A stretch of DNA of 41,774 bases from a virus, in IMG/VR virus record IMGVR_UViG_3300030104_006801, positions 13,785 to 55,558 of that record; one strand, written 5' to 3'. Shown one piece after another: positions 1,567 to 11,454 of the stretch. The notes beneath the pieces were generated by a model that was not told where the DNA came from, made no database searches, and saw nothing but the letters and a program-made list of their open reading frames with translations. A program made the translations under genes and the position numbers. Numbering within the stretch: position 1 is the stretch's first letter; each line of letters opens with the position of its first letter.

Positions 1567-2013
1567 CTATATTAATTGTTTAATTGTATCTAATTCATTT
1601 TGAGATATTTTTAATTCTTGATCACCTATTTCTGGTTTACGATCTGGTATTTCTTCTGCCATAACAGGATCTCCTGACATTTCCCAAGGTCCCCAATGTC
1701 CTTCATCAACCATAAACTTTGCTGCTTCTTCTGGAGTATAATATTTACATTCTTTTGGATCAATTCTACCTAATGCATAATATACTTGTTTTGGTATTTC
1801 TAATTTTCTACCGTTGGAATGATCTAATACTGTATCTCTAGATTCTACCCAACAATGCCCATATCTCATACCTTCTAATTGACCTTGTCCATTAACCATA
1901 CCATGTACAAGTTTATGATCTTTATCGCCAAAGAATTCCATAATAAGTCTTCCTCCAGCTGGATAACAATCGCCCATCTTGCCTTCTAATAATATGTCTT
2001 TTAGTTTAATCAT
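1567..2013 (-). CDS. Hypothetical protein with capsid-targeting-like N-terminus
   Basis: 148 residues. It starts MIKLKDILLEG, nearly identical to two genes just upstream in transcription; the rest of the protein is unrelated to them. The peptide ends L-L-E before G, which fits the T4 prohead protease gp21 rule (I/L-x-E before A/G/S) and resembles the capsid-targeting sequence of T4 internal proteins. The body after residue 12 (about 136 residues) has Cys16 and Cys54, many aromatic residues and segments such as MRYGHCWVES and YYALGRIDP. It looks like a compact folded domain, but I recognise no family. The ATG overlaps the stop of the 36-aa lipoprotein gene (ATGA). A packaged head protein is the best guess; its function once released is unknown. 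Confidence 0.85.
   Translation of the reverse strand: MIKLKDILLEGKMGDCYPAGGRLIMEFFGDKDHKLVHGMVNGQGQLEGMRYGHCWVESRDTVLDHSNGRKLEIPKQVYYALGRIDPKECKYYTPEEAAKFMVDEGHWGPWEMSGDPVMAEEIPDRKPEIGDQELKISQNELDTIKQLI
1982..2013 (-). repeat. Capsid-targeting leader repeat, copy 1
   Basis: The first 32 nt of the gene starting at 2013 match the first 32 nt of the gene starting at 2536 with one substitution (A/G in the second codon's wobble position). They encode MIKLKDILLE plus the start of G. The DNA identity ends where the shared peptide ends. Confidence 0.85.
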
Positions 2014-2120
2014 TTTTTAGAACAACATTCTTTTTTTTCTTTATCACATTTTTCTGTTGTATGTGTTGTTGTAGCACATCCTGCACATAGTAGCAATAAT
2101 ATCAATAATAATTTTTTCAT
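2010..2120 (-). CDS. Small lipoprotein, 36 aa
   Basis: A short gene in what otherwise looks like a 103-nt gap. The protein begins MKKLLLILLLLCAGCATTT, a bacterial lipoprotein signal: two lysines, a hydrophobic stretch of leucine and isoleucine, and a lipobox-like L-C-A-G-C ending at Cys15. The mature part would be about 22 residues, hydrophilic and cysteine-containing (Cys25, Cys32, Cys33), ending in KK. Both ends show ATGA overlaps: its start overlaps the stop of the gene at 2117, and its stop overlaps the start at 2013. This argues strongly that it is real. Tiny phage lipoproteins include Rz1-type spanins and superinfection-exclusion proteins. No overlapping i-spanin gene is visible, so its job is open. 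Confidence 0.8.
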   Translation of the reverse strand: MKKLLLILLLLCAGCATTTHTTEKCDKEKKECCSKK

Positions 2121-2536
2121 ATGTATTTCTTCCAATTACGTTCTGCTTGTTCTGCAGCTTTTTCATATTTGTTATTTTCATATCCAGCTGCTCTTGCAGC
2201 TTTCACTTTTTTCTCATCTTGTGTTGCATGAGTATATTCATGTAACAAAGCTTGGATAACTAACTTTTCGTTTACAAGTGCTATACTAAATAAATATATT
2301 GTATTTGTGCCCCAATCATATTCTGCATGTTCATTCTCACCTCCCATATCTGGAGATACTGGATGGTCTGGTATCTTACTATGAAGTGCCAATACATTGT
2401 TATGTATTTCTATGTTAGGTAATCCTTTTTTAGTTGGTCCTAATGTTTTAGCTATCTGTGGAAGAACCCTATCTGCAATAGATTGTATTTCGTTTTTGGA
2501 TAATCCTTCTAATAATATGTCTTTTAGTTTGATCAT
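2117..2536 (-). CDS. Putative zinc metallopeptidase (HExxH) with capsid-targeting-like N-terminus
   Basis: 139 residues. The N-terminus MIKLKDILLEG is shared with neighbours and matches the gp21-type cleavage rule between E10 and G11. The body carries HEYTH at residues 99-103, inside a hydrophobic helix (VIQALLHEYTH), the usual form of the zincin zinc-binding and catalytic helix. A downstream stretch, NKYEKAAEQAE at about 122-132, offers a third glutamate ligand, as in SprT-like and related small peptidases. Removing the leader would leave about 129 residues, a minimal zincin. If packaged, the peptidase could act in the host soon after DNA entry, or on head proteins during maturation. The metallopeptidase fold is well supported; the exact family and target are not known. 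Confidence 0.82.
   Translation of the reverse strand: MIKLKDILLEGLSKNEIQSIADRVLPQIAKTLGPTKKGLPNIEIHNNVLALHSKIPDHPVSPDMGGENEHAEYDWGTNTIYLFSIALVNEKLVIQALLHEYTHATQDEKKVKAARAAGYENNKYEKAAEQAERNWKKYI
2505..2536 (-). repeat. Capsid-targeting leader repeat, copy 2
   Basis: 31 of 32 nt match the copy at 1982-2013, covering the first ten codons and the start of the eleventh. The sequence after it is unrelated to the other gene's. Confidence 0.85.
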
Positions 2537-3069
2537 TTGAATAGTATTTCCATTTTATCACCAAATACTTTTTTAATTGTTGCTCCTGGTAGATTTTTTT
2601 TAATATATGCTGCATATAATTTATTTCGCTGATTTGATTTGGTATCCTCGGCTTTAGCTCCTTCATATTCAACTGATTTAAGTCCCCATTCACTTTTTTC
2701 TGCTTCTTTCATAAAGTCCTTAAAGGCCTCTACAATTGTTGCCATTATATTAAATAGTTCACCTCTATTTGTTTCAGTTTCATAATCTACTTGCTTTTGT
2801 GGACCACGTATTTGTCTACCAGATAAATCATGTATACTACTACCCATTTTATATGGTCCAAATGCTGCATGCCAATATCCTTTTCCTTCAACTGGTACTG
2901 TCTCAATTGTTAAAACATATTGTAATCCTGAATCAGTTTTCCATACATATTCATAATCAGTTACATCCATACCGAACGCCTTTTTTGTTTTGTGATCGGC
3001 TTTCCATTTGTATGGTTTGGCTGAACCTTCTCCTATTTCTAATAATATGTCTTTTAATTTTATCGCCAT
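2533..3069 (-). CDS. Hypothetical protein with capsid-targeting-like N-terminus
   Basis: 178 residues. It starts MAIKLKDILLEIGEG, the shared leader with one extra residue. I-G-E before G at 12-15 fits the prohead-protease rule, as does L-L-E less well (the next residue is I). The body has a beta-rich first half (segments such as YVWKTDSGLQYVLTIETV) and a helical part near GELFNIMATIVEAFKDFMKEAE. The end, SNQRNKLYAAYIKKNLPGA onward, is the R-x-K-L-Y type of motif I associate with conserved hypothetical proteins of marine T4-like phages. It overlaps the next gene by 4 nt (ATGA) and the previous one by 10 nt. No enzymatic motif was seen. Confidence 0.85.
   Translation of the reverse strand: MAIKLKDILLEIGEGSAKPYKWKADHKTKKAFGMDVTDYEYVWKTDSGLQYVLTIETVPVEGKGYWHAAFGPYKMGSSIHDLSGRQIRGPQKQVDYETETNRGELFNIMATIVEAFKDFMKEAEKSEWGLKSVEYEGAKAEDTKSNQRNKLYAAYIKKNLPGATIKKVFGDKMEILFK
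3038..3069 (-). repeat. Capsid-targeting leader repeat, divergent copy 3
   Basis: The start of the gene at 3069 keeps the core of the leader (CTAATAATATGTCTTTTA on the plus strand), with an inserted codon after ATG. It is recognisably the same repeat as the copies at 1982 and 2505, but more diverged. Confidence 0.7.
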
Positions 3070-3296
3070 GGTAACATTGTCATTCCAATTTTATTTAATA
3101 TGAATTCCATTATAATTACAAATGATATTCCACCTACTATTTGCCAAGCCCAAAACTTCCAACCAGTTAATCCTTCTTGCCATTTACGAAATTTGCTTTT
3201 CTTTGTCCATTCATATACTCCTAACTTAGAATTGATTTTATCTGCCCACCAACTGGTGTCAAATATATTTCCTAATAGTTTTAAGAGTTTAATCAT
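3060..3296 (-). CDS. Small single-pass membrane protein
   Basis: 78 residues, rich in tryptophan. Residues 1-45 are amphipathic and basic (KKSKFRKW). Residues about 47-70 (WAWQIVGGISFVIIMEFILN) form one predicted membrane-spanning helix, followed by a short tail ending PWR. It begins MIKLLKLLGN, reminiscent of the neighbouring leaders, but without the glutamate needed for prohead-protease cleavage. I therefore do not count it as a tagged protein. It overlaps both neighbours (10 nt at its 3' end, 4 nt at its 5' end), so it belongs to the operon. An inner-membrane role in the host is likely. No family recognised. Confidence 0.75.
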   Translation of the reverse strand: MIKLLKLLGNIFDTSWWADKINSKLGVYEWTKKSKFRKWQEGLTGWKFWAWQIVGGISFVIIMEFILNKIGMTMLPWR

Positions 3297-4384
3297 TTCT
3301 TTTTCTTTTTACCACGTCTCATATTCAATTGCCATCTTGCCATTCTGCCTTTCTCACCTTTTGCTTTTGCTAATTTAGCTAATTGAGTTAATGTAGCTCC
3401 TTTTGGAATACCAACTCTTTTGGATATACCTTTTCTACCTGGTTTCTTTCCATCTGCAAAGTTTTCTTCAACATCATCATCCTTTGATTTATCAAATGGT
3501 TTGAATTCTGAAGTTCCTAACTGATAATAATCTGGCTTATGACCTCTAGATAACTTAGAATGATAATCTATTTCATTTATATCTTTTATTTTTGATAATA
3601 TTGTTTTCAATTTAGGATTTTTGATATCTGATAATATTGTTTTTATTACAGTAAAATCAGCTTTGAAACCTTTTCCAAAAACATGATCAGCTTCTGGCCA
3701 ATGCATTTGTGTATAATCACCTCCTTCAAACCATGGCTCAGGCTTACCTGCTAATTTTCCTAATTTTCTTGTATTCCCTCCATGTATAAATCCTGTATCT
3801 GGTTCTCCTGAATCTGCACCATATACTGCATTAGAACTTGTTTCTTTTATTAATTTAGTAATTGATTTTACATTTGGATACTTATTCAACATATTATTTA
3901 CAGCTGCAATATTTTTATTTGAATCATCCATAAAATAAATTGTGTCATATCCTTTTTTAATTTGTTTTTCTATCCAATCTGCTTTTTTTTGTGGATCTGC
4001 AGATCCTAATGGAACTACATATGCATCAATACCAACTGATTTCAAAAAACTTGTTACAGGTTGTCCTAACCTTCTTGCAGTTAATATAGTAACCTTTCTA
4101 GCTCCTTTTGAAGCTTTTCTTGCTTTATCTAATTGTTTTTTTAGTAATTCAGCATTACGTTTTATTAATCTTGGATTTCTAATTTTTCTATCAAAATCTT
4201 TAAAGTTAAAATCTTCGCCTGGTCTTGGTCTGTAAACTGCAAATTGTGCTGGGTCTAATTTTTTAATTGTACGACCTTGTCGCGTAACATATATCCATGC
4301 ATCTGATTTTGCAATTGTATCATCAAAATCAAACACAGATAGTACTTTACCTTCTTTGAATATATTTTTTAAATTTATTCCCAT
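3293..4384 (-). CDS. HAD-superfamily hydrolase-like protein with basic C-terminal tail
   Basis: 363 residues. An HAD phosphatase core fills about residues 14-185: motif I FDFDDT with the Asp nucleophile, motif II TILTAR, a lysine segment KKADWIEKQ and motif III FMDDS. All four are present, so it may be active, acting like a nucleotide or polynucleotide 3'-phosphatase. The middle region includes an HGGNTRKLGK stretch. The C-terminus, from about residue 310, is strongly basic and ends in six lysines; its GRKGISKRVGIPKGATLTQL segment resembles a module I know from marine phage proteins. The N-terminus MGINLKNIFKEG is a diverged form of the cluster's leader (F-K-E before G, not a perfect match to the protease rule). 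A DNA-associated head protein carrying an enzyme is the inference. Confidence 0.85.
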   Translation of the reverse strand: MGINLKNIFKEGKVLSVFDFDDTIAKSDAWIYVTRQGRTIKKLDPAQFAVYRPRPGEDFNFKDFDRKIRNPRLIKRNAELLKKQLDKARKASKGARKVTILTARRLGQPVTSFLKSVGIDAYVVPLGSADPQKKADWIEKQIKKGYDTIYFMDDSNKNIAAVNNMLNKYPNVKSITKLIKETSSNAVYGADSGEPDTGFIHGGNTRKLGKLAGKPEPWFEGGDYTQMHWPEADHVFGKGFKADFTVIKTILSDIKNPKLKTILSKIKDINEIDYHSKLSRGHKPDYYQLGTSEFKPFDKSKDDDVEENFADGKKPGRKGISKRVGIPKGATLTQLAKLAKAKGEKGRMARWQLNMRRGKKKKK

Positions 4385-4563
4385 TTTCTATTATATTTTT
4401 CTCTCTGGTCTACAAGTACATATTCAACCGAATCATATTCTCCACAATGCGGACATCTTAATTTTTCTATATGGTCAGCCTCATTTATCTTCCATTCACC
4501 ATCACATTTCTTATTACTACATTTGTAAATATATGTATGTCTAATAAATACTTTATGTCCCAA
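4375..4563 (-). CDS. Small zinc-ribbon protein with TTG start
   Basis: 62 residues. Two cysteine pairs, CSNKKC at 15-20 and CPHC at 37-40, make a zinc ribbon with 16 residues between them; the C-terminus is charged. The start is unusual. The frame has no ATG, but a TTG at 4561-4563 lies 7 nt behind a strong Shine-Dalgarno sequence, AAGGAG, so I accept TTG. It overlaps the HAD gene by 10 nt and follows the upstream gene by 11 nt. Small zinc ribbons in phages often bind nucleic acid or host polymerase. Nothing here tells which. Confidence 0.75.
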   Translation of the reverse strand: MGHKVFIRHTYIYKCSNKKCDGEWKINEADHIEKLRCPHCGEYDSVEYVLVDQREKYNRKWE

Positions 4564-4570
4564 TGGTTGT

Positions 4571-4576
4571 CTCCTT
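4571..4576 (-). promoter_or_regulatory. Ribosome binding site deciding a TTG start
   Basis: AAGGAG on the minus strand, 7 nt before the TTG at 4563. It overlaps the stop codon of the upstream gene and is the reason for accepting the non-ATG start of the 62-aa zinc ribbon. Confidence 0.65.
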
Positions 4577-4778
4577 AATGTTCACAATGTTCGCAATAAC
4601 ATGGTGGCCTTGCTTCTGTATTGTTTACCTCTTCACCTTTACTATTTTTTATAATTAAATCTGTATCTTTTTTTACTAATATATCATCTGTAGTAAGATT
4701 ACGAACGTGACATTTACATGTATCACATATTTCAGTTAATGTCTGAGTTCCTTCTTTTGATATAGTTAATTGTATCAT
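4575..4778 (-). CDS. Small cysteine-rich protein, likely zinc-binding
   Basis: 67 residues from an ATG at 4778, one base after the stop of the upstream gene. A longer reading of the frame would overlap that gene by about 160 nt and is rejected. Six cysteines cluster at the two ends: C18-x2-C21-x-C23 and C60-x-C62-x2-C65. They form a mirrored pair of knuckles that could hold one zinc site and bring the ends together. The middle (residues 28-55) is polar and probably beta-stranded. Function unknown; it is the second of two adjacent small metal-binding proteins. Confidence 0.7.
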   Translation of the reverse strand: MIQLTISKEGTQTLTEICDTCKCHVRNLTTDDILVKKDTDLIIKNSKGEEVNNTEARPPCYCEHCEH

Positions 4779-4779
4779 C

Positions 4780-5148
4780 TTACCACTTTCTACAAGACCA
4801 ATATCTTGCTTTTGTTTTAGGTCCTGGATTATCACAATTATGTCTTGCACGGAATGATCTTCTTCTTGCAGGATCACTTTTTTTGATACGCATAGTTTTT
4901 TGTCCAGCTTTCTTAGCAGACGTACCACCATGACCAAAGTTTACTTTTTTAACTTTTATAGTACCATCTTTATTCTTTTTACCAGTATTAACATATACTT
5001 TAAATTTTTTAGTATCACCACGCATTGGTTTATTTAATTTAACTTTACGACCTTGATATTCAGCTTCTTGGAATATTACTGGACCTGAATGTTCAATTAT
5101 TTCTAATCTTAGATATTCATTTCTATATATTACTTTTTCTTTGTTCAT
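4780..5148 (-). CDS. Basic conserved phage protein with ARHNC...YWSC motif
   Basis: 122 residues, strongly basic. From about residue 46 it contains a module: KKFKVYVNTG, KKVNFGHGG, then SDPARRRSFRARHNCDNP and ARYWSCRKW, with cysteines at 105 and 119. I recognise this module as recurring in T4-like marine phages, where it appears alone or joined to other domains. Its role there is not established. Residues 1-45 are a separate, less basic part. It overlaps the 5145-6101 gene by 4 nt. Arginine richness suggests nucleic acid binding; packaging with DNA in the head is an inference from neighbours. It has no capsid-targeting leader of its own. Confidence 0.8.
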   Translation of the reverse strand: MNKEKVIYRNEYLRLEIIEHSGPVIFQEAEYQGRKVKLNKPMRGDTKKFKVYVNTGKKNKDGTIKVKKVNFGHGGTSAKKAGQKTMRIKKSDPARRRSFRARHNCDNPGPKTKARYWSCRKW

Positions 5149-6101
5149 TTCTTTTTCCCTTTAGATGTTGTCTTACCCCAATTAGCAGCTCCTACCTTAC
5201 GACATTTGGATAATGATAATGAACCATATGCTGATGGCCATACATCATATCTTGATTTTACTTTATAATAACACTTATCTCTTTTAGCTGCTTCATTTAA
5301 TTCTTGCATAAATCGAATAAATCTTTCTTTTAAAAAAGATTCTACTTTAGTTTTTACATTTTTAGCTTTTTTTGGTGGCTTACCTTTTTTACCTTTATAC
5401 ACAGCTCTTTTTCTTCTAGTAGCAGATGATTTATCTTTTTTACTCATACTAGCAGCTTTACTTGCCGGTACACATTTAGGATAAGCTCTTTTTCCACCAG
5501 CTCTAGATTTCTTTCCAGCTGATGCTCCACATGCAGGATGACCTCCTCCTTTCTTTTTTCTAGAGATATCTACCCATCTTTGTTTAACCCATTTTCTTAA
5601 ATCTTCTACAACTTCTTCATATCCTGAACCATATGGCGCAGCTAAACCTGTTTCTTCTGAAACAATATCAATAATTTCGTCTAAAGATATTTCTTCTTTT
5701 TTAACACAATTAGGAACTCGTTTGCCGAATAAAGTTTTCATACCCTTTTTTTCATATCCTTTCCAACATCTTGTGCCTTCTTCTAACGGATCTTCATCAT
5801 CTGCAGATGATTTTGATGGTTCTGGTAGTCCTGCGGAGACTGTATCTGAATCATCTTTTGTTTCATCTGGTGTTTGGCCTACTACTTGATATCCTGTTGA
5901 CACATCATCATCTGGGTTAAAATCTGTTAGTAATGTATCTGATTCCACTCCAGCCATTGGTGACGGAGAACCAGAACCATCTTCTAATCCATGTTGATCA
6001 GCAAATACCTTGTCTAAGTCTGTATCATTAATATCAATTGTACTTTCTAAGTCTTTCAATTTAACTGGCAGATTTTCTAATATGTGTCCAAGTTTTATCA
6101 T
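5145..6101 (-). CDS. Multidomain phage protein: acidic N-part and basic cysteine modules
   Basis: 318 residues in distinct segments. It opens MIKLGHILEN, a diverged cluster leader. Residues 20-108 are acidic and low-complexity. At 106-109 the sequence L-E-E before G fits the prohead-protease rule and marks a sharp switch to basic sequence. Then come a CWKGYEKKG...VPNCV module (112-133), a basic GGGHPACG...YPKCVPASKAA module (187-215) resembling DUF5872, a lysine-rich linker, a second leader-like stretch (FIRFMQELNEAA, 261-272, with L-N-E before A), and a final KCYYKVKSRYDVWPSAY module (276-310). All three modules are familiar from marine phage and large-virus proteins. Removing the acidic part could yield a basic, DNA-associated head protein. 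Function unknown. Confidence 0.82.
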   Translation of the reverse strand: MIKLGHILENLPVKLKDLESTIDINDTDLDKVFADQHGLEDGSGSPSPMAGVESDTLLTDFNPDDDVSTGYQVVGQTPDETKDDSDTVSAGLPEPSKSSADDEDPLEEGTRCWKGYEKKGMKTLFGKRVPNCVKKEEISLDEIIDIVSEETGLAAPYGSGYEEVVEDLRKWVKQRWVDISRKKKGGGHPACGASAGKKSRAGGKRAYPKCVPASKAASMSKKDKSSATRRKRAVYKGKKGKPPKKAKNVKTKVESFLKERFIRFMQELNEAAKRDKCYYKVKSRYDVWPSAYGSLSLSKCRKVGAANWGKTTSKGKKK

Positions 6102-6716
6102 TTAGATAATATCTTTACTTTCAATTAATGTATATGAAAATGAATTACCATGAATTTCTCTAGCTGCTTGACAAATATCTAAAAATTCATGCCAATCATC
6201 ATTATCAGCAATTACTTGACATCCTGCAGACCATTTATCTACTCTTGTAGATGTTCCACCTTTCCTACCAGTTGCTCTATGGATATTAATTCCAAATAAA
6301 CCTGTGTCTGTTTTAGATTCATCTAAATCATAATTTGCATCTCTATCATTGTCTCTATAAACTGTTACATTTTTCTTTTGACCTAATGCAAGATACTTAC
6401 CAGCATGTAATCTTAATTTATGAGATCCTCTATATTGGCCTGGCTTTAATATAGCAGTTCCTTTGCTTTCTACTATTGGATTATTCATGTATGCAGAACC
6501 TGGATCTGTTGTGCATTTGAATTCATGGTATTTCCAATTACCGTCAACTTTATAAGCTATTGTTAAAATATCATCAAAAGCATTTGTAACTCTTCCTTTT
6601 GTTTCTGAATTTCTAACACCTATGATATTGACATCATATCCTTTTTCGTTAGTATCATGGAAATATTTGTAACCCATTCCTTCTACTGTTGATTGAATTT
6701 TTTCTCTTGTGTACAT
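6102..6716 (-). CDS. L,D-transpeptidase-like (YkuD-type) putative cell-wall enzyme
   Basis: 204 residues. The C-terminal half has the outline of an L,D-transpeptidase active site: FGINIHRATG with His146, followed about 17 residues later by DKWSAGCQV with Ser163, Gly165 and Cys166. The family pattern is H...S-x-G-C with cysteine as nucleophile. The usual histidine just before the glycine is alanine here. The N-terminal half (1-100) is not recognised. There is no signal peptide, so it would need a holin, ejection or release at lysis to reach the wall. A role as endolysin or wall-remodelling enzyme is a reasonable guess. It has its own 68-nt upstream gap with a good AGGAG ribosome site and a possible promoter. 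Family assignment is moderate. Confidence 0.72.
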   Translation of the reverse strand: MYTREKIQSTVEGMGYKYFHDTNEKGYDVNIIGVRNSETKGRVTNAFDDILTIAYKVDGNWKYHEFKCTTDPGSAYMNNPIVESKGTAILKPGQYRGSHKLRLHAGKYLALGQKKNVTVYRDNDRDANYDLDESKTDTGLFGINIHRATGRKGGTSTRVDKWSAGCQVIADNDDWHEFLDICQAAREIHGNSFSYTLIESKDII

Positions 6717-8801: not shown

Positions 8802-10042
8802 ATTATTAATTCCTTTTCTGTTGTTATTAAATTATTTATTGTTACTGTTAAATTACCCAGTTCAAAACTACCTACTTCTCCACTATCTTTTAATATTTCA
8901 GATAATTTTTGTATATATTCAAAATCTGTATTATTAAATTTATATTTATCAACTTCAATCAGTATACTATTTTGTTTTTCATTATTAAATGGTAATACTC
9001 TTTCTGATAGATTAAATGATGTTGTTCTTTGATCTGTCGAAATATAATGTTTTCTTAAGTTACTATCACAATATATGTTACTACACCATGGTTCTAGTAT
9101 TCTTAACATCTTAATATCATTATGTACTAAAATAATACCAACATCATATTTTGGTGGAATGATTGGTTTTAAATATTCATCATGGTTACAAAAATGTCCC
9201 CATTTTCTAATAAACTCTCTTGTTGATTTTTGATTTTGTTTTAACCATTCATCTGTTTCTCGATTCTTCATAAACACCTGGCCATCTGGATTTCTTTTTG
9301 CTCCGTCTGCAAACCTAGAACCTCTACATGTCATGTGATAAACACAACCTTTCCATGTTTGAATAAACTTTACTCCGTTTAGCTGAAACCTATTAAATAT
9401 ATCTGTATCTTCCTTTGATTGTGGAGCAAATAAAGAGTCATGGCCTCCTATTTCTTGAAAATCTTTTTTCCAAAATGCCCATGGAGCAAATATACCTTCT
9501 GTAGTTTTAGTTGATTGTTTTGGAATTTCTCTTGTAACCCATTCTAATAAACTCTCTTCATCAAATTCTTCAGGTTCTATACCAAAATCCATTATTATTT
9601 TTTCAGGACCTGGTGGATGTAATGGTGGTTCTATTCTTGTTAATGAAACAATTGTTTTGGCTTTTCCAATATTGTTATATATTGTATCTCCAGTAATAAC
9701 ATTTTTCATATACATATGTTCTTCAATTGAATCTAGAGCTCCTGGGCATAGATACATATCAGCATGATATATCATACATAAATCATGACTAGCTAATTCA
9801 TTTACTAACCTGTCATACAATATTGTATGTCCTAACCTTGTTGGTCCATTGTTTCTAATTGCTTTAAAATTAGAATCTTCTTTCATCATTTTTTGGCACC
9901 AATCCCAAGTACCATCATTTGAATAATCATCAGCAACGCATATCTCTACTTCATGTTCTCCTTGATTTTTTCTTATAGAATTATAAGACCATTTAAGATA
10001 CTTAAGATTATTTCTTCCTGGTTGTATTAAACTTATTTTCAT
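8786..10042 (-). CDS. GT2-family (GT-A) glycosyltransferase
   Basis: 418 residues. The N-terminal GT-A domain starts SLIQPGRNN and contains EICVADDYSNDGT (33-45), the nucleotide-binding part of family 2. HADM at 93-96 takes the place of the metal-binding D-x-D (H-A-D). Residues to about 270 complete the domain, with an FWKKDFQEIGGHD acceptor-side segment. Residues 280-418 are an additional domain, ending in a beta-rich stretch, that I do not recognise. The gene lies between a cytidylyltransferase and an epimerase (4- and 16-nt overlaps). Donor and acceptor are unknown. Cytoplasmic; no membrane segments. Confidence 0.82.
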   Translation of the reverse strand: MKISLIQPGRNNLKYLKWSYNSIRKNQGEHEVEICVADDYSNDGTWDWCQKMMKEDSNFKAIRNNGPTRLGHTILYDRLVNELASHDLCMIYHADMYLCPGALDSIEEHMYMKNVITGDTIYNNIGKAKTIVSLTRIEPPLHPPGPEKIIMDFGIEPEEFDEESLLEWVTREIPKQSTKTTEGIFAPWAFWKKDFQEIGGHDSLFAPQSKEDTDIFNRFQLNGVKFIQTWKGCVYHMTCRGSRFADGAKRNPDGQVFMKNRETDEWLKQNQKSTREFIRKWGHFCNHDEYLKPIIPPKYDVGIILVHNDIKMLRILEPWCSNIYCDSNLRKHYISTDQRTTSFNLSERVLPFNNEKQNSILIEVDKYKFNNTDFEYIQKLSEILKDSGEVGSFELGNLTVTINNLITTEKELIICKKQ

Positions 10043-10470
10043 ATTTGTTTTAGTATATCTGGGTTTTGTTTTATAGTTTGCTTAGTGATTAAATCTTTCA
10101 AACGAGTTGTTGACCAATCATGAGATCTAGTTGTATATATAACTTTAGGTGGAAGGTCATCTCCTGTAAATGGTTTACCTATATAATCTTCACCTAAAAT
10201 TCTAATATCTGGTTTGAGCCATTCAATTAATTTGTATAATTCTTCTTCTGTTTGATATACATATACCTCATCTACATATTTTATAGACGTTAGTGTTTTA
10301 TATCTTTCATGTAATGAAATAACAGGTTTATATTTTGTGAATCTTGTTAATGATGGATCTCTTTGTAAAAATACTACAAATTTATCACAATGTCTTTTTG
10401 CTTCTTCAAATGTGTAAATATAACCTGGATGTAACAAATCAAAATTTCCTGCTGTAAATCCTACTTTCAT
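10039..10470 (-). CDS. Cytidylyltransferase-like nucleotidyltransferase with altered HxGH motif
   Basis: 143 residues, the length of TagD/GCT-type glycerol-3-phosphate cytidylyltransferases and of the adenylyltransferase domain of HldE. It starts VGFTAGNFDLLHPGYIYT, the right place for the HxGH signature. The residues are H14-P-G-Y17, so tyrosine replaces the second histidine, which normally stabilises the transition state. The second signature, R-x-x-x-x-STT, is present as RSHDWSTTRLKD (115-126), and ILGEDY is the usual central strand. The enzyme would couple CTP or ATP to a phosphorylated sugar or polyol for the glycan pathway, if the tyrosine is tolerated. It overlaps the GT2 gene by 4 nt and follows the previous gene by 9 nt. 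Confidence 0.82.
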   Translation of the reverse strand: MKVGFTAGNFDLLHPGYIYTFEEAKRHCDKFVVFLQRDPSLTRFTKYKPVISLHERYKTLTSIKYVDEVYVYQTEEELYKLIEWLKPDIRILGEDYIGKPFTGDDLPPKVIYTTRSHDWSTTRLKDLITKQTIKQNPDILKQI

Positions 10471-10479
10471 AATTTCTTC

Positions 10480-11454
10480 CTATTTTAATACTTGTTTTAT
10501 TTTATTTAAAAAATTCTTATAACCATTATTCATATCAATACTATCTTTATCTACTACTGGATGCAAATTAGGATTAATCATAAAATGATAATTTTTTATA
10601 TTTTTATTTCCTTTTGAATCTTTCCAAAAACATTTCCTATTAATTTCTGTCAATGTTCCGCCATAATATGCAACTGTTGGTTTTCTAAAAAAACATGGAA
10701 ATAATGTAGACCCTCCTCCCATAGTTATAAATCCAAATGCATTTGTAAATAAATTCAACTGTACTTCATTGTATGTCATGTCTGCATGTTCTGTGACTAT
10801 ATCATTTAGTAAATATACATTTTTATAATGTGTTGTTAAGTCATAATCATCCATTATACCTATACCATCTATATTAGCAACTAAATTTTCTTTACGGTTA
10901 AGAGTATTTACTTCATTTTGATCTAATGGAAATTCTGTATTATTTGGTCTTTTATAAACAACTATATAACCTTTATCTGTTGCCCAATTAAAAATATTAT
11001 ATAAACACTGGATATCAAAATATCCAACAGGTGGCTTTCCATGTTCCCAATTATATCGATTTGAAACAACAATAAATGGTTTTTCAAATTTAAAAACATC
11101 ATTTTTAAATTGCATATTATAGTCAGGCAATTTCCATTTGGTATAATCTAATATTCCACAACCTCTTTCTACAGATGCAAATTCTTCCCATTCAGGCCAT
11201 TCTTCTTTATATAATTCTGCATTTCCTTTAAAGCCATATATCCAGTTGTTAGGTATTGCATCCATTCCTGCTGCTGAATTATCTACTGTACGATACTCAT
11301 ATTTTTCTTCTACATTATCACAAAAATAATAAAATGGTTTCATGCCTTTTGTAGTAACAACCTTTTCTAATTTTCCTTGTTGATGTAGCCAGTATGCATA
11401 TGGAACTACCAATGTTAATTCAATTCCAAATTCTGGGTTTGTATCTACTATCAT
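10480..11454 (-). CDS. Putative GT-B-like glycosyltransferase, family unclear
   Basis: 324 residues. The C-terminal half includes NAFGFITMGGGSTLFPCFF and RKPTVAYYGG (about 240-272). A glycine-rich loop with a conserved serine, followed by 'pick a sugar donor' type strands, is seen in GT-B enzymes such as fucosyltransferase- and heptosyltransferase-like proteins. The middle has a FIVVSNRYNWEHG strand-loop at the likely domain start. The 617-aa protein at 22486 has a similar second half. The assignment rests on this resemblance and on neighbours. It starts 3 nt after the CapF-like gene. Confidence 0.6.
   Translation of the reverse strand: MIVDTNPEFGIELTLVVPYAYWLHQQGKLEKVVTTKGMKPFYYFCDNVEEKYEYRTVDNSAAGMDAIPNNWIYGFKGNAELYKEEWPEWEEFASVERGCGILDYTKWKLPDYNMQFKNDVFKFEKPFIVVSNRYNWEHGKPPVGYFDIQCLYNIFNWATDKGYIVVYKRPNNTEFPLDQNEVNTLNRKENLVANIDGIGIMDDYDLTTHYKNVYLLNDIVTEHADMTYNEVQLNLFTNAFGFITMGGGSTLFPCFFRKPTVAYYGGTLTEINRKCFWKDSKGNKNIKNYHFMINPNLHPVVDKDSIDMNNGYKNFLNKIKQVLK

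What the first reader, a model, noticed from the sequence alone, without database searches (positions are those of the whole stretch)
1567..6101. Cluster of genes sharing a capsid-targeting-like N-terminal peptide: a possible head-packaged, ejected protein set
Three unrelated proteins begin with MIKLKDILLE or MAIKLKDILLE; two continue with G (starts at 2013 and 2536) and the third with IGEG (3069). Two more have diverged forms (starts 4384, 6101). The peptide ends in I/L-x-E before G, the rule for cleavage by the T4 prohead protease, and resembles the roughly 10-residue capsid-targeting sequences of T4 internal proteins. Such proteins are packed in the head and ejected with DNA. Here the tag precedes an HExxH peptidase, a HAD hydrolase and basic multidomain proteins, so the cluster may be a set of injected effectors.
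Basis: partly seen in the sequence, partly recalled or inferred. Interest (0 to 1): 0.78.

Follow-up and report, generated by a model that had tools for sequence, protein, structure and literature searches.

The report
Phage head-loading tag on injected enzymes
A group of T4-related phages, probably infecting Bacteroidota, puts the same removable 10-residue tag on the front of dozens of unrelated enzymes; the tag looks like the T4 signal that loads proteins into the virus head so they can be shot into the host with the DNA.

Summary
MIKLKDILLE (or a close form) opens five window genes and at least four more in the same 55.6-kb record. It also opens about 80 unrelated protein families in other viral contigs; the reversed peptide gives none. 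Conservation stops at Glu10. Among ORFs chosen only for starting MIKL, 45 of 55 have E10, position 8 is nearly always L, position 9 is free, and nothing after 10 is shared. This is the T4 prohead-protease rule ([L/I]-x-E|). It also matches the T4 capsid-targeting sequence, where residues 4 and 7 target and 8 and 10 control processing. Every record of at least 115 kb with this leader encodes gp21 (11/11). Their major capsid proteins carry the same L-[VIL]-x-E| motif where T4 gp23 is cut. In several phages the leader sits on proteins encoded between gp21 and gp23. The same HAD and papain-like bodies occur elsewhere without a leader or with other leaders ending [L/I]xE. Cargo includes ADP-ribosyltransferase-like, Zn-peptidase-like, HAD, Zeta-toxin, RimK, NUDIX, SOD and 2H (Acb1-like) domains. 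Best reading: a T4-type capsid-targeting propeptide used as a general tag for head-packaged, ejected enzymes. Packaging, cleavage and ejection are inferred; no virion data exist here.

The parts
1984..2013 (-). Leader MIKLKDILLE (predicted propeptide, cut after E10)
   Evidence: AF2 model gives residues 1-12 pLDDT below 50 and the body 13-112 mostly 75-96
1567..1983 (-). Cargo body 1: GDCYxAGGR...HGMVNGQG...GHxWVE...D, cysteine-protease-like C/H/D pattern
   Evidence: 53-member alignment with invariant C16, H37, H53, D64; homologues elsewhere start directly at GDCY with no leader; PDB fold search not significant, weak papain-like hits only
2507..2536 (-). Leader MIKLKDILLE
2117..2506 (-). Cargo body 2: HEYTH (HExxH) zinc-peptidase-like protein
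   Evidence: DUF3920 E 9e-5, below the curated cut-off; a leader-bearing relative hits MPTase-PolyVal weakly, also below cut-off
3037..3069 (-). Leader MAIKLKDILLE
2533..3036 (-). Cargo body 3: IGEGSAKPYKWK family, function unknown, also fused behind body 1 in a relative (G005)
   Evidence: homologues in G002 (two adjacent copies), G005, G007, all behind MIKL leaders
4352..4384 (-). Diverged leader MGINLKNIFKE
   Evidence: homologous HADs carry MAIKLIDILFE, MIKLKTILQE, MIKFKGILEE at the same place
3293..4351 (-). Cargo body 4: HAD phosphatase (DFDDT...TILTAR...DDS) with a basic C-terminal extension
   Evidence: polynucleotide-kinase-like PHROG E 4e-4; at least 511 relatives in viral contigs
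6075..6101 (-). Diverged leader-like start MIKLGHILE (weakest of the five)
   Evidence: one of 10 MIKL starts without E at position 10
5145..6074 (-). Basic multidomain protein, modules shared with phage proteins of unknown function
   Evidence: PHROG hits 727, 23735, 38880 and others, all unknown function
4780..5148 (-). Neighbouring small basic protein without leader
   Evidence: phrog_7595, unknown function

Best explanation
The shared N-terminus is a T4-type capsid-targeting propeptide. During head assembly the amphipathic M-x-K-L-K-D-[IL]-L part binds the prohead core and pulls the tagged protein inside (inferred). The prohead protease gp21 then cuts after [IL]-L-x-E (inferred from motif and from the gp23 site), freeing the enzyme inside the head. 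It leaves with the DNA at the next infection and acts in the host (inferred from T4 and from domain content). Because the tag is short and modular, unrelated genes acquire it readily, giving each phage its own battery of about 3-11 tagged enzymes, often adjacent. Shown: the tag, its modularity, its abrupt end at the protease motif, gp21 and the matching gp23 site in relatives, and its presence on proteins of the head gene cluster. Not shown: packaging, cleavage, ejection, enzyme activity.
For: (1) Enrichment and control. (2) 190 unique leader proteins form 80 body clusters; an alignment of 115 gives the consensus MIKLKDILxE and then nothing. (3) ORFs selected only for MIKL: E10 in 45/55 against 8.5% background, L8 in 47/55, hydrophobic residue 7 in 53/55, free residue 9. 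T4 work found residues 4 and 7 needed for targeting and 8 and 10 for processing (PMC9026906); T4 IPII/IPIII read MKTYQEFIAE|A. (4) gp21 (PF03420) in 11/11 MIKL-leader records of at least 115 kb and gp23 in the eight of them searched. gp23 carries L-[VIL]-x-E at the position aligned with the T4 cut FLTE|A in 13/13, one of them with I in place of the first L. (5) Leader on proteins encoded between gp21 and gp23 in G006 (two), G019 and G027, and next to gp21 in G015; a conserved head-cluster protein has this leader in G019 and other leader-like N-termini in G023 and Mel-JY01. (6) One HAD body occurs leaderless (13 loci), with MIKL leaders, or with unrelated extensions; 41 of 43 extension types have phi-x-E within 8 residues of the fold, null 19%. 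The papain-like body shows leaderless against tagged too. (7) Cargo domains; ART family with H, S..R, ExEE motifs, Tox-ART-HYD1 above cut-off, fold hits Tpt1/KptA, DarT, TreTu.
Against: No virion proteomics was found for any phage with this leader. The window's own 55.6-kb record lacks gp21 and gp23. Some cargo (lysozyme, SOD, NUDIX, CCA-like nucleotidyltransferase) could work in the producing cell. Leader clusters can lie far from head genes (G005, about 75-90 kb). The scaffold gp22 N-terminus (DLLKEAIADAK) resembles the leader core, but G003, G005, Mel-JY01 and immuto lack the Glu, so identity with the scaffold end is not established. gp21-positive phages with leaderless bodies exist, so gp21 alone does not predict the tag. 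ART fold E-values are not significant on their own (0.13).
Confidence: 0.75

Rival explanations
1. The tag brings the proteins to the prohead core and is cut, but most cargo acts inside the head or during assembly (core filler, maturation factors) rather than being ejected as effectors.
For: Leader on conserved head-cluster proteins of unknown function; many bodies have no recognisable enzyme domain.
Against: Bodies include Zeta toxin, ART-like, NUDIX, SOD, RimK, 2H/Acb1-like and peptidase-like folds, which are not structural; T4 precedents Alt and IPI are ejected and act in the host (PMC9026906).
Confidence: 0.13
2. The leader is a docking or sorting peptide for something other than the head (a cytoplasmic complex or membrane site), and the LxE ending is incidental.
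For: Some tagged enzymes are usually cytoplasmic; no packaging data.
Against: Conservation stops exactly at the protease motif with a free P2 residue; unrelated leaders on the same HAD also end phi-x-E; leader on gp21-gp23 cluster proteins.
Confidence: 0.08
3. The shared start is a nucleic-acid feature, such as a translational operator (RegA-like) or a recombination hot spot at gene starts, read as peptide.
For: The three best window copies share the bases AAAGACATATTATTAGAA.
Against: 24 different nucleotide versions in 29 unrelated genes with varied synonymous codons; upstream bases unrelated; variation follows amino-acid classes.
Confidence: 0.02
4. Common ancestry of the tagged proteins or chance.
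For: A few clusters (HAD, ART) are true families.
Against: About 80 body clusters by BLAST at E 1e-3; reversed-peptide control 0; 58 against 2.35 expected.
Confidence: 0.01

Closest known systems
Phage T4 capsid-targeting sequence of internal proteins IPI, IPII, IPIII (Mullaney and Black 1996, via PMC9026906)
   Same: 10-residue N-terminal peptide shared by otherwise different proteins; hydrophobic residues 4 and 7, aliphatic 8, Glu 10; ends at gp21 motif; phages carry gp21, gp22 and gp23.
   Different: Different sequence (MIKLKDILLE against MKTYQEFIAE); T4 tags three small basic proteins, here about 80 body families including enzymes, often in runs of adjacent genes; cleavage and packaging proven in T4 only.
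T4 Alt, head-packaged ADP-ribosyltransferase
   Same: ART-like cargo predicted to be head-packaged and ejected.
   Different: Cargo ARTs here are small H-Y-H/ExE type (Tox-ART-HYD1, Tpt1-like fold hits), not Alt relatives by the searches run.
Giant-phage ejection-protein propeptides (SPN3US, phiKZ; PMC5694885)
   Same: Prohead-protease-removed N-terminal propeptides on ejected head proteins; SPN3US gp53/gp54 share an identical N-terminus.
   Different: Motif A/S-x-E and propeptides mostly over 100 residues; here 10 residues and [IL]-L-x-E.
Polyvalent proteins of phages and plasmids (PMC5512222)
   Same: Overlapping domain repertoire (ART, zincin, NUDIX, GNAT), predicted injection with DNA.
   Different: Polyvalent proteins fuse 2-15 domains in one chain; here mostly single domains, each with its own tag.

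Membership tests
T4-type capsid-targeting propeptide | Short N-terminal peptide shared by unrelated proteins | tested here: met
T4-type capsid-targeting propeptide | Ends at gp21 consensus [L/I]-x-E with free P2 | tested here: met
   same motif at the gp23 site
T4-type capsid-targeting propeptide | Hydrophobic residues at targeting positions 4 and 7 | tested here: met
   Residue 7 hydrophobic in 53/55; L4 was a selection criterion there, so only 7 is an unbiased test; positions from PMC9026906
T4-type capsid-targeting propeptide | gp21-type protease and T4-type scaffold and capsid in the same genome | tested here: met
   11/11 leader records of at least 115 kb carry gp21; not found in the window's own fragmentary record
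T4-type capsid-targeting propeptide | Common descent with the T4 IP leader | tested here: inconclusive
   Same 10-residue pattern but too short and too different to prove homology
T4-type capsid-targeting propeptide | Protein found in the virion with the leader removed | not testable with these tools
   needs virion mass spectrometry
T4-type capsid-targeting propeptide | Ejection into the host | not testable with these tools
   needs infection experiments
Polyvalent proteins | Several disparate domains in one polypeptide | tested here: not met
   Window cargo genes are separate, mostly single-domain ORFs; a few fusions exist in relatives
ADP-ribosyltransferase superfamily (one cargo family) | Catalytic H/R, S, E motif set and ART fold | tested here: inconclusive
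   Motifs present, Tox-ART-HYD1 just above cut-off for one member, fold hits all ART superfamily at the top but E 0.13

The most novel reading that the evidence does not exclude
A general head-loading address system. In this T4-related group several interchangeable leader classes coexist, some within one genome (MIKLKDILxE; MKKSELxxIIKEEIxxVLxE; FDLKKFLVENKLTxNSxLLxE; MKKQILSEQFxRMQxLAGIITE). Most end in [IL]xE. At least one resembles an end of the scaffold gp22 (RMQxLAGI equals its C-terminal motif). Any enzyme that picks up a tag becomes head cargo, and different tags might set position, copy number or order of ejection.
Probability: 0.35. Interest if true: 0.85.

Novelty: new variant of a known kind. 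Interest (0 to 1): 0.68.

Why it matters
If right, a 10-residue sequence rule predicts which of the many unknown proteins in T4-related phages of Bacteroidota are carried in the head and shot into the host. That would turn hypothetical proteins into a testable list of first-minute effectors and anti-defence candidates, and would offer new tags for loading foreign proteins into phage heads. The library searched holds no paper that prints this leader.

Tried and rejected
IGE as the cleavage site (it is body sequence). Chance or common ancestry. RNA or DNA operator. Using gp21 presence as a two-way discriminator: leaderless bodies also occur in gp21 phages. gp22 N-terminus as the same leader: suggestive only, since four of 13 lack the Glu. 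tblastn of window cargo bodies against cultured phages: no hits for bodies 1, 3 and 4. Fold search of the papain-like body: nothing significant. Cyanophage Syn9 as a proteomics-backed comparison: no repeated leader class found in the stretches read. PADLOC on the cargo: scattered weak hits only.

Full report
What is there. Three are MIKLKDILLE or MAIKLKDILLE, two are diverged. The window is bases 13785-55558 of a 55,558-base virus record, and the unseen left part holds four more leader starts. The record looks like a T4-related phage of a Bacteroidota host: family B DNA polymerase, GroEL, a large protein with a T9SS type A sorting domain above cut-off, and relatives of one neighbour gene mainly in Bacteroides and crAss-like phages.

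Not chance. In 12 records the looser leader occurs at 58 of 1,686 N-termini against 2.35 expected. The nucleotide sequences vary synonymously: 24 versions in 29 unrelated genes, so the selected thing is the peptide.

Shape of the signal. Collected proteins fall into 80 body clusters; aligned, they share MIKLKDILxE and nothing after. To avoid circularity, ORFs were selected only on MIKL in 14 sequences: residue 10 is Glu in 45/55, residue 8 Leu in 47/55, residue 7 hydrophobic in 53/55, residue 9 free, residue 11 onward random. In T4 the IPIII leader MKTYQEFIAE is cut after E10, residues 4 and 7 matter for targeting, 8 and 10 for processing (PMC9026906). The two peptides match position by position in character, not in letters.

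The protease. gp21 (PF03420) is present in all 11 MIKL-leader records of at least 115 kb, and gp23 in the eight of these that were searched for it. In 13 gp23 proteins (11 metagenomic records and two cultured relatives) aligned with T4 gp23, whose cut is FLTE|A, [LI]-[VIL]-x-E stands at that place. In G006, G019 and G027 a leader protein is encoded between gp21 and gp23, and in G015 next to gp21. One conserved protein of that cluster has MIKLKDILFE in G019 and different leader-like N-termini in G023 and Mel-JY01.

Modularity. The HAD body has at least 511 viral relatives. Among 80, some start directly (MGKVLRVFDFDDT, 13 loci), others carry MIKL leaders, others unrelated extensions such as LFTED, SINEG, QLREG, PINEAE. 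In 41 of 43 extension types a phi-x-E lies within 8 residues of the fold, null 19%; these types are not all independent. The papain-like body behaves alike: tagged in this group, leaderless elsewhere. AlphaFold leaves the leader of window gene 1 at low confidence and the body confident.

Cargo. Pfam finds lysozyme, RimK ATP-grasp, NUDIX, Zeta toxin, SOD, poly(A) polymerase/CCA type, HAD, HExxH and 2H/Acb1-like domains, some of them below curated cut-offs as stated in the parts list. An ART-like family has H, S..R and ExEE motifs, Tox-ART-HYD1 above cut-off in one member, and fold hits led by Tpt1/KptA with DarT and TreTu further down, E 0.13, probability 0.96. These overlap the domain list of polyvalent proteins thought to be injected (PMC5512222).

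Cultured relatives. gp22 searches found Microcystis phage Mel-JY01 and Flavobacterium phage immuto. Mel-JY01 has MIKLKSLLQE/KE and MIKLMSLVTE on three ART-like genes. A search for N-termini shared within a genome recovers T4 IPII/IPIII as a positive control and finds further classes: MKKSELxxIIKEEIxxVLxE (six in G002) and FDLKKFLVENKLTxNSxLLxE (four in immuto).

Mechanism. Most likely a T4-type capsid-targeting propeptide: core binding, gp21 cut after LxE, ejection. The sequence evidence reaches as far as a gp21-type propeptide on many enzymes; incorporation, cleavage and ejection are inferred from T4. Weak points: no virion data, no gp21 in the window's own fragment, possibly cytoplasmic cargo, and gp22 ends that only partly match.

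Verdict. Confirmed observation, well-supported but unproven interpretation; a new and much expanded variant of a known kind.

Noticed in passing
L166/L169 and other stretches of G002; immuto MW353175 1803-2318, 103806-104354, 117631-118931: Other N-terminal leader classes repeated on unrelated proteins, also ending [IL]xE: MKKSELxxIIKEEIxxVLxE and FDLKKFLVENKLTxNSxLLxE. The first 306 bases of the window's record encode MKQELFRKLVKEEIKTVLKE, which looks like the first class.
   Followed up: partly
immuto MW353175 25061-25456 and 111675-112139; gp22 C-termini of 13 phages: Two proteins begin MKKQILSEQFxRMQxLAGIITES; RMQxLAGI matches the C-terminal motif of the scaffold gp22 in the same group (RMQKLAGIK, RWQKLAGIIK), possible scaffold mimicry.
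   Followed up: partly
L122:3029-7153 (record, left of window): 1374-aa phage protein with many GCTDxxAxNY repeats and a T9SS type A sorting domain (37.3 bits, cut-off 23): a phage protein apparently built for secretion by the host's type IX system.
   Followed up: partly
L196:18124-18996 (G005 158124-158996): Leader MIKLRNLLHELNE followed at once by C in a weak AAT/C45 Ntn-hydrolase match (20.4 bits, below cut-off): a cut after LNE would expose a candidate catalytic N-terminal cysteine.
   Followed up: no
L262, L267, L270, L287: HAD fused behind nucleotidyltransferase-like domains with [LI]xE-type linkers (ISEG, LSEG, INEGG, FTEL), as if head cargo were made as cleavable polyproteins.
   Followed up: partly
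L122:8803-9753 and 9755-10729: A leader-like string NIKLGSLLEA occurs inside one protein, and another (leader MFKLKSLLLE) ends with IIKLKSLLGK; internal or C-terminal tags may exist.
   Followed up: no
window 6102-6716: Protein related to crAss-like and Bacteroides phage genes, with an endolysin PHROG as second hit; supports a Bacteroidota host.
   Followed up: partly
window 7030-31347: Long block of sugar-nucleotide, glycosyltransferase and epimerase genes, similar to a block in phage immuto.
   Followed up: no
L021:8704-9258: Leader-bearing 2H phosphoesterase (2_5_RNA_ligase2 above cut-off, Acb1 below cut-off), a possible head-delivered anti-CBASS enzyme.
   Followed up: no
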